NCBI GenBank assembly: GCA_900551515.1
Contig: URWH01000083.1
Span: 1 to 7,775, forward strand
DNA: 7,775 nt
From: an uncultured Porphyromonadaceae bacterium
GTDB taxonomy: Bacteria > Bacteroidota > Bacteroidia > Bacteroidales > Muribaculaceae
Direction of reading: 5' to 3'
The stretch's first letter is position 1, and the number at the start of each line of letters is the position of its first letter. Below the pieces are notes generated by a model. The model saw only the letters and a program-made list of their open reading frames with translations. It was not told where the DNA came from and ran no database searches. Shown one piece after another: positions 5,385 to 7,775 of the stretch. Position numbers and translations under genes: made by a program.

Positions 5385-7775
5385 ATGGAATTCAAGCTCT
5401 CATCGCAATATAAACCCACGGGCGACCAGCCGCAGGCCATCGAACAGCTGTCGCAGGGCATCCTCGACGGTGCGCCCGCCCAGACGCTGCTCGGCGTCAC
5501 CGGATCGGGCAAGACGTTCACCATGGCCAACGTGATCCAGAAGGTGCAGAAACCAACCCTGATCCTGAGCCACAACAAAACGCTTGCCGCACAGCTCTAC
5601 AGCGAATTCAAATCGTTCTTTCCCGAAAACTCGGTGCAGTATTTCGTTTCCTATTACGACTACTATCAGCCCGAAGCCTACATCCCGTCGGTCGACAAAT
5701 ACATCGAAAAAGACCTGATGATCAACGACGAGATCGACAAACTGCGTCTCGCCACCACATCGGCCCTACTCTCCGGGCGCAAGGACATCATCGTGGTCAG
5801 CTCCGTGTCGTGCATCTACGGCATGGGCAATCCCGAAGACTTCAACAGCAGCGTCATAGCCATCAGCGTCGGTCAGAAGATCACGCGCAACGCCTTTCTG
5901 CGCGAGCTGGTCAACGCCCTCTATTCACGCGACGAGATCAACTTCTCGCGCGGCAATTTCCGTGTGAAAGGCGACACCGTCGACATCCATCTCGCCTATG
6001 AGGAGATCATAGTGCGTGTGGTGTTCTGGGGCGACGAGATCGAATCCATAACCACACTCTACCCCGACGACTATGTCACTCTCGGCCAGCTCGATTCTTT
6101 CAACATATTTCCCGCCAACATCTTCGTCACCTCGCCGCAACGGATGGCCTCCGGTCTGGCTCAGATCGAGCTTGACCTCGGCGAGCAGGTCAACTTCTTC
6201 TACAAAGAGGCACGCGAACTCGAGGCACGGCGCCTGCAGGAACGCGTGAGCTACGACATCGAGATGATGCGCGAGGTGGGCCACTGTTCCGGCATCGAAA
6301 ACTACAGCCGCTACTTCGACGGCCGCCGTCCCGGCATGCGCCCTTTCTGTCTGCTCGACTATTTTCCGAAGGACTTCCTCACCATCATCGACGAGAGCCA
6401 CGTCACCGTCCCGCAGGTTCGCGCCATGTATGGCGGTGACCTCTCGCGAAAGATGAATCTTGTGGAATACGGCTTCCGCCTCCCGGCGGCGCTCGACAAC
6501 CGTCCGCTGAAATTCGAAGAATTCGAAAAGCTCACTCCACAGGTGCTCTACGTCAGCGCCACGCCCGCTGACTATGAACTGCAGCGTAGCGAAGGTGTCG
6601 TCGTGGAGCAGATCATTCGTCCTACAGGGCTCCTCGATCCGGTCATCGAAGTGCGCCCCACCGTCAACCAGATCGACGACCTCATCGACGAAATAGCCAC
6701 CCGCACCGACAAGAGCGAACGCACGCTCGTCACCACGCTGACAAAACGCATGGCCGAAGAGCTCAACGATTATCTCACGCGGCTGAAAATAAAAACCGCC
6801 TACATCCACAGCGACGTCGACACGCTCGACCGCATCCGCATCCTCGACGACCTGCGCGCAGGCGTCTACGACGTGCTTATCGGCGTCAACCTCCTCCGCG
6901 AGGGCCTCGACCTGCCTGAAGTGTCGCTCGTGGCCATTCTCGACGCCGACAAGGAAGGCTTCCTGCGGTCACACCGCTCGCTGACGCAGACCGTGGGCCG
7001 CGCCGCACGAAACCTCAACGGCACCGTCATCATGTATGCCGACAAGATCACCGACTCCATGCGCCTCACCATCGACGAGACCGAACGCCGCCGCACGCTC
7101 CAGCTTGCCTACAACGAAGAACACGGCATCACTCCCACGGCCATCGTCAAGGCCCGCAACCGCATCATCGGCCTCGACAAGGCCGAAGCCGAGGAGGCAG
7201 CGGCAGCCGCACCGAAGCGCCCGCAGCGCAGCGACAAGCCCGCCGCCAAGTCGTCGCGCGAAAACGGCCACGCCCTCTACGATCAGGAATTCTCCACATC
7301 GGTTGACATCGCCGCCGATCCTGTGGTGCCATATATGAACGCCGACGAACTCCAGCGCACAATCACGCGACGCCGCATGGAGATGGTCGACGCCGCCAAG
7401 CGCATGGACTTCATGGAGGCCGCACGCCTGCGCGACGAAGTGCTGAAACTCGAAGCCGAAATCGCCCGCCTCACCCGCGAAATCGCCGAGCGCACCGACT
7501 ACGAAAGCCCCGAATACGAACAGCTCCTGCACCGTCTGAACGACGCGCAGGACCACTATCATATCCTCGGCGGCGAGACCCGCGACGCGGACATCGAGAA
7601 GACGCTGCTGGGCCTCGGGTTCAAACGGTCGGATTTCGGGCGCGCCACGAGCGAGTTCTCGGGCGGCTGGCGCATGCGTATCGAGCTGGCGAAGCTGCTG
7701 CTCAGGCGGCCCTCGATCTTCCTGCTGGACGAACCGACGAACCACCTCGACATCGAGTCGATCCAGTGGCTCGAA
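5385..7775 (+). CDS. uvrB: UvrABC excision nuclease subunit B, open at the right edge and fused in frame to ABC-F sequence
   Basis: UvrB is the DNA-damage-verifying helicase-like subunit of nucleotide excision repair; it is loaded by UvrA and recruits UvrC. The frame runs 797 residues without a stop. Visible motifs: Walker A GVTGSGKT (37-44); the tyrosine-rich beta-hairpin [16 protein letters not shown] (86-101), which inserts between the strands; Walker B region TIIDESH (333-339); motif [13 protein letters not shown] (500-511); motif [11 protein letters not shown] (535-543). An Ala/Lys/Pro-rich linker (about 603-650) leads to the UVR domain (about 655-692, [18 protein letters not shown]), which contacts UvrC and UvrA. 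The family is usually about 660-700 residues, so UvrB is essentially complete by residue 695, and the expected stop is absent. Residues from about 700 match an ABC-F ATPase instead. The ATG start is supported by the N-terminus [19 protein letters not shown]. It follows a terminator, so it is probably its own transcription unit. Confidence 0.95.
7457..7487 (+). repeat. 10-bp direct repeat at the UvrB/ABC-F junction
   Basis: The sequence cgaaatcgcc occurs at 7457-7466 and again at 7478-7487, exactly 21 bases (seven codons) apart and in the same frame, encoding EIA twice in the segment [13 protein letters not shown]. It lies where UvrB similarity ends and ABC-F similarity begins. It may be a microhomology junction or simply a heptad repeat of a coiled coil. 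Confidence 0.6.
7488..7775 (+). other. Fragment of an ABC-F ATPase (first nucleotide-binding domain) in the uvrB frame
   Basis: Residues 702-797 of the uvrB frame match the middle of the first ATPase domain of ABC-F proteins (the EttA/Uup family of soluble, ribosome-associated ABC ATPases). The segment begins with [13 protein letters not shown] and continues through [10 protein letters not shown]. The signature is SGGWRMR (residues 759-765), and Walker B with D-loop is [11 protein letters not shown] (779-789, catalytic E783). The usual Walker A, normally about 100 residues before the signature, is absent: UvrB occupies that place. This domain therefore could not bind ATP in the usual way. The rest of the protein would lie beyond 7775. 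From about 7561 GAG is preferred over GAA (5 to 2), the reverse of the 7443-7560 stretch (1 to 6), hinting at a different source, although the sample is small. Confidence 0.8.

What the first reader, a model, noticed from the sequence alone, without database searches (positions are those of the whole stretch)
7443..7775. In-frame fusion of UvrB to an ABC-F ATPase missing its Walker A
The frame passes without a stop from the UVR domain of UvrB into the signature and Walker B motifs of an ABC-F protein. Both parts are well conserved and in frame. The junction removes only the last residues and stop of UvrB, but roughly the first 100 residues of the ABC-F protein. If real, it would link DNA repair and a translation-factor ATPase in one polypeptide, with a first ATPase domain that cannot bind ATP normally. 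The more likely explanation is a chimera near a contig end, because a Walker A-less domain makes little functional sense and the known families are separate proteins.
Basis: partly seen in the sequence, partly recalled or inferred. Interest (0 to 1): 0.7.

Follow-up and report, generated by a model that had tools for sequence, protein, structure and literature searches.

The report
Artificial join of two bacteria's genes
The apparent fusion of a DNA-repair protein with a translation-factor ATPase is almost certainly an assembly or library artefact that stitched together genes of two different bacteria at a short look-alike stretch, so it is not a new protein.

Summary
A UvrB identical at 689 of 690 residues (P0122) ends normally at 703 aa. 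All 80 uvrB loci fetched stop at 665-721 aa. The ABC-F piece is 94-99% identical to the 12 best-matching ABC-F loci of another family of the same order, but only 61-69% identical to the ABC-F loci of seven relatives of the uvrB owner, which lie elsewhere in those genomes. DNA similarity to uvrB most often ends at 7455; similarity to ABC-F never starts before 7433 in the loci compared. Proteins of both families encode DEVLKLE there (7434-7454). The join lies about 320 bases from the window end. None of the 240 proteins listed by two searches of 5.8 billion has both parts. Raw reads were not available, and the donor's own DNA was not found. Verdict: inter-species chimera, not a real feature.

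The parts
5385..7454 (+). uvrB, codons 1-690, from a Muribaculaceae-like Bacteroidales; real gene, cut 13 codons before its normal end
   Evidence: NF003673 1003 bits; 689/690 identical to P0122, a 703-aa UvrB
7434..7454 (+). stretch encoding DEVLKLE, a motif present in UvrB (P0122) and in ABC-F proteins P0002 and P0003: the probable join
   Evidence: protein identity switches at residues 684-690; uvrB blastn matches end at 7455 in 8 of 24, ABC-F matches start at 7433 in 9 of 41 and none earlier
7455..7775 (+). ABC-F fragment (signature and Walker B of the first ATPase domain, no Walker A), from another family of the order; cut by the window end
   Evidence: 94-99% identical to ABC-F loci L121-L132, 61-69% to ABC-F loci L081-L087 of uvrB-owner relatives

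Best explanation
The window is a chimeric sequence. Bases up to about 7434-7454 come from one Bacteroidales species (Muribaculaceae-like, judging by record titles of relatives), and bases from there to 7775 come from the ABC-F gene of a species in another family of that order. The two were joined, in an assembly graph or by template switching during library amplification, at a short stretch that encodes DEVLKLE in both genes. Because the stretch lies in the same frame in both, the false product stays open. In the real organisms UvrB ends 13 residues after the stretch, and the ABC-F ATPase is a separate, complete protein. Shown: two origins, position of the switch, normal ends in relatives, no fused protein among those listed. 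Inferred: identity of the shared stretch in the donor's DNA, and which step (assembly or library) made the join.
For: (1) P0122 (703 aa; cluster of 17 member sequences on 2 contigs, members not seen) is identical to the window UvrB at 689 of 690 residues and ends ...DEVLKLEEILKTKSSDGNND. (3) The fragment (107 residues) is 94-99% identical to 12 of 12 ABC-F loci L121-L132, the 12 best of 253 matching genomes in another family, and 61-69% to 7 of 7 ABC-F loci of uvrB-owner relatives (L081-L087). (4) In those 7 genomes uvrB and ABC-F lie apart: 5 on different contigs; in G001 about 0.5 Mb apart and in G005 about 0.16 Mb apart on one contig. (5) No blastn match to any of 142 loci spans 7400-7520. 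(6) Of the 240 proteins listed by two searches, 120 are UvrB, 120 ABC-F and none both. (7) The join lies about 320 bases from the window end.
Against: No reads were available, so depth and spanning reads are untested. The exact 23 bases 7433-7455 were found in 0 of 268 genomes of the ABC-F family; with up to 3 mismatches 14 of 268 had a hit, and of the 10 whose ABC-F place is listed only G400 (3 mismatches) has it there. So the shared stretch in the donor is inferred from proteins P0002/P0003. The best genome of that family is 90% identical in DNA: the donor itself was not found. Most ABC-F matches start later than 7433 (32 of 41). Codon usage agrees only weakly.
Confidence: 0.97

Rival explanations
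1. A real gene fusion in one strain: the uvrB owner took up part of an ABC-F gene from another family by recombination at the short shared stretch, and the fused protein is made.
For: The frame is open through the join and codes well on both sides. Short homology can also guide real illegitimate recombination (recalled).
Against: A UvrB identical at 689 of 690 residues ends normally. No protein listed in two searches holds both parts. The fragment lacks Walker A, so its first ATPase domain should not bind ATP normally (inference). The join is close to the window end.
Confidence: 0.02
2. A real intragenomic rearrangement joining the owner's own uvrB and its own ABC-F gene.
For: The 7 relatives searched do carry an ABC-F orthologue in the same genome.
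Against: Those orthologues are only 61-69% identical to the fragment, against 94-99% for the other family.
Confidence: 0.01

Closest known systems
UvrB, excinuclease ABC subunit B (TIGR00631 / NF003673)
   Same: Residues 1-690 are an ordinary UvrB up to its C-terminal UVR motif.
   Different: The last 13 residues are replaced by foreign sequence.
ABC-F ATPases (NF000355; P0007, L121)
   Same: Residues 684-797 match residues 90-203 of a complete ABC-F protein (P0007) at 97% identity.
   Different: The fragment lacks Walker A and everything after the first Walker B region.
Chimeric contigs of metagenome assembly (PMC7299287; passages seen)
   Same: Sequence of two species joined through a shared stretch.
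   Different: Source, assembler and reads of this window are unknown, so the step that made the join is not shown.

Membership tests
Inter-species chimeric contig | the two sides come from different organisms | tested here: met
   Fragment 94-99% to one family, 61-69% to the uvrB owner's relatives
Inter-species chimeric contig | switch at a short sequence shared by both parents | tested here: inconclusive
   DEVLKLE in P0122 and P0003 at residues 684-690; exact DNA identity in the donor not shown
Inter-species chimeric contig | no reads span the join, or depth changes there | not testable with these tools
   No read data held
Real UvrB-ABC-F fusion protein | same architecture in at least one independent genome | tested here: not met
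   0 of 80 uvrB loci; 0 of 240 listed proteins with both parts (lists capped at 120 each)
Functional ABC-F ATPase | Walker A in the first ATPase domain | tested here: not met
   ABC_tran match starts at profile position 79; alignment starts at ABC-F residue 90, after Walker A

The most novel reading that the evidence does not exclude
A rare strain really carries a UvrB whose last residues were swapped for part of a foreign ABC-F ATPase by recombination at a 21-base shared stretch, linking nucleotide excision repair to an ABC-F domain.
Probability: 0.02. Interest if true: 0.45.

Novelty: not a real feature. Interest (0 to 1): 0.03.

Why it matters
It does not change biology. It is a clean example of how an in-frame false fusion can arise where two unrelated proteins encode the same short motif, and of how to expose it: compare each side with its own relatives and ask whether both come from the same lineage. 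It should not be annotated as a fusion protein.

Tried and rejected
A real fusion was rejected on the evidence above. An intragenomic join was rejected because the relatives carry a clearly different ABC-F. A mobile or phage carrier of the ABC-F piece: in the plasmid collection 56 records matched, none covering 80% of the query, the top row being 74% identical over 53% of it; in the phage collection all 545 records that matched the complete P0007 had a best place below 60% identity. The exact shared 23 bases were not found in the donor family. A search of the genus of G001 with the uvrB DNA cannot show where similarity ends, because the query itself stopped at 7460. Two codon-usage scripts were faulty and are not used: one search trained on wrong frames and counted GC3 out of frame, and one search used a mistyped motif, so its donor set was empty. 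The corrected run gives weak support: the fragment's log-ratio (8.9 with the alaS model, 6.5 with the uvrB model) exceeds all uvrB windows, but about 1% of alaS windows reach it. Papers holding UvrB, ABC-F and 'fusion protein' together: 0 in the held library, which does not cover most subscription journals.

Full report
What was claimed.

What the sequence shows. The frame 5385-7775 (+) is open for 797 codons to the window end. It matches UvrB over residues 2-691 and the later part of an ABC ATPase domain over 709-786 (Pfam ABC_tran positions 79-137). The genes before it are ordinary: alaS (238-2862, -), a MerR-type regulator (2929-3294, +) and a protein with a Calycin_like domain (3451-5199, +). 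Blastn pieces at 252-3273, 4288-4581, 5074-5200 and 5363-7455 of the window match relative L002 in the same order and on the same strand, so the window reads like one genome as far as 7455; the stretches between those pieces did not match.

Where UvrB should end. A search of the whole frame against 5.8 billion proteins (8000 candidates scored, best 120 listed) gave P0122 (703 aa; cluster of 17 member sequences on 2 contigs, the longest 2678 bases; members not seen). It differs from the window at one residue (617) up to residue 690, then goes on EILKTKSSDGNND and ends. P0123-P0134 (95-97% identical) end at 700 or 703 aa. In 34 genomes of the genus of G001, 28 matched the uvrB DNA, but that query stopped at 7460, so it says nothing on what follows.

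Where the ABC-F piece comes from. Residues 684-797 match P0003 at 113 of 114 residues, and P0004, P0007 and others at 97%. A search of the best-matching part (residues 620-797; 7997 candidates scored, best 120 listed) gave ABC-F proteins only; a few align over 92% of that part at 71-73% identity, but none of the 120 has a UvrB match of over 300 residues. By DNA, 393 genomes drawn from the order of G001 (237 with a match) gave at most 77% over 300 bases or more among the matches listed. The family of one of the best, G120 (268 genomes, 253 with a match), gave 90% in G412 and 89% in G415 over window 7433-7774; among the matches listed only G460 starts earlier, at 7426, with 74%. G001-G007 are not among those 268 genomes. 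The 12 best loci of that family, L121-L132, all hold an ABC-F frame that begins MISLDNL and has Walker A; 11 have 644-665 codons and L124 has 306. Each of the seven genomes of uvrB relatives that I searched (G001-G007) has an ABC-F orthologue (best match 56-60% identical to P0007). Over the fragment's 107 residues these are 61-69% identical (L086 over 101 residues), while L121-L132 are 94-99%. They lie away from uvrB: on other contigs in five genomes, about 0.5 Mb away in G001 (uvrB C3:41897-43976, ABC-F C3:541341-543308) and about 0.16 Mb away in G005. The fragment is therefore foreign to the uvrB owner's lineage. Several uvrB relatives are titled Muribaculaceae, Duncaniella or Muribaculum; the two closest are titled Bacteroides sp..

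The join. Among blastn matches to the 142 loci then held (some of them the same place fetched twice), those that start before 7300 and end after 7350 number 24; 8 end at 7455 and none beyond 7464. Those that end after 7700 number 41; 9 start at 7433, none earlier, and 32 later. None spans 7400-7520. In 25-base bins, identity to uvrB of L002 falls from 92% (7426-7450) to 48% and then 32%, while identity to ABC-F of L121 rises from 48% to 68% and then 92%. At the protein level identity to P0003 starts at residue 684 and identity to P0122 ends at residue 690: both contain DEVLKLE, window 7434-7454. If the donor's DNA is the same there, as its protein suggests, the stretch lies in the same frame in both genes, which is why the false frame stays open. 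Against this, the exact 23 bases 7433-7455 occur in 0 of 268 genomes of the donor family. With up to 3 mismatches 14 of 268 have a hit; for 10 of these one search lists the ABC-F place, and only G400 (3 mismatches) has its hit there. The L121-L132 type mostly reads EVLRLE; only P0002 and P0003, of the eight ABC-F proteins whose letters I read, carry DEVLKLE.

Codon usage. With synonymous codon models trained on the window's own genes and on the donor-family ABC-F genes outside the matching part, the fragment looks like the donor family (log-ratio 5.8; the 12 homologous pieces 2.4-14.8). It exceeds every held-out uvrB window of the same length and all but about 1% of alaS windows. This is weak but agrees.

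How it arose. Assembly graphs of metagenomes linked by shared k-mers can give chimeric contigs (PMC7299287; passages seen; found through the listing). A join at a stretch of about 21 bases, some 320 bases from the end of the window, between two Bacteroidales of different families, fits that, or template switching in library amplification. I cannot tell these apart and saw no reads; that the window comes from a metagenome is itself only a guess (one search says no genome is held for it). The protein database holds other proteins that look like joins at conserved ABC motifs (P0001-P0003).

Verdict. The letters are as described; the fusion protein is not a real feature. Confidence 0.97.

Noticed in passing
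P0001, P0002, P0003 (proteins): Further proteins that look like chimeras: P0001 (922 aa) and P0002 (930 aa) run from one ABC-F protein into another, with two stretches matching EttA-type models; P0003 has an unusual N-terminus joined near Walker A (seen by eye).
   Followed up: partly
P0121, P0136 (proteins): Two UvrB proteins with long exact in-frame internal duplications (444 residues in P0121, 189 in P0136), on contigs of about 113 and 150 kb; assembly artefact or real partial duplication is not settled.
   Followed up: partly
window 3451-5199: A secreted-looking (by eye) 582-aa protein with a Calycin_like domain (PF13944) between a MerR regulator and uvrB; only short parts match relative L002 in DNA, so it may evolve fast.
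   Followed up: partly
window 1-237: A stretch without a match in 34 genomes of the genus of G001 (the tool warns that an empty answer without a positive control shows nothing); nature unknown.
   Followed up: partly
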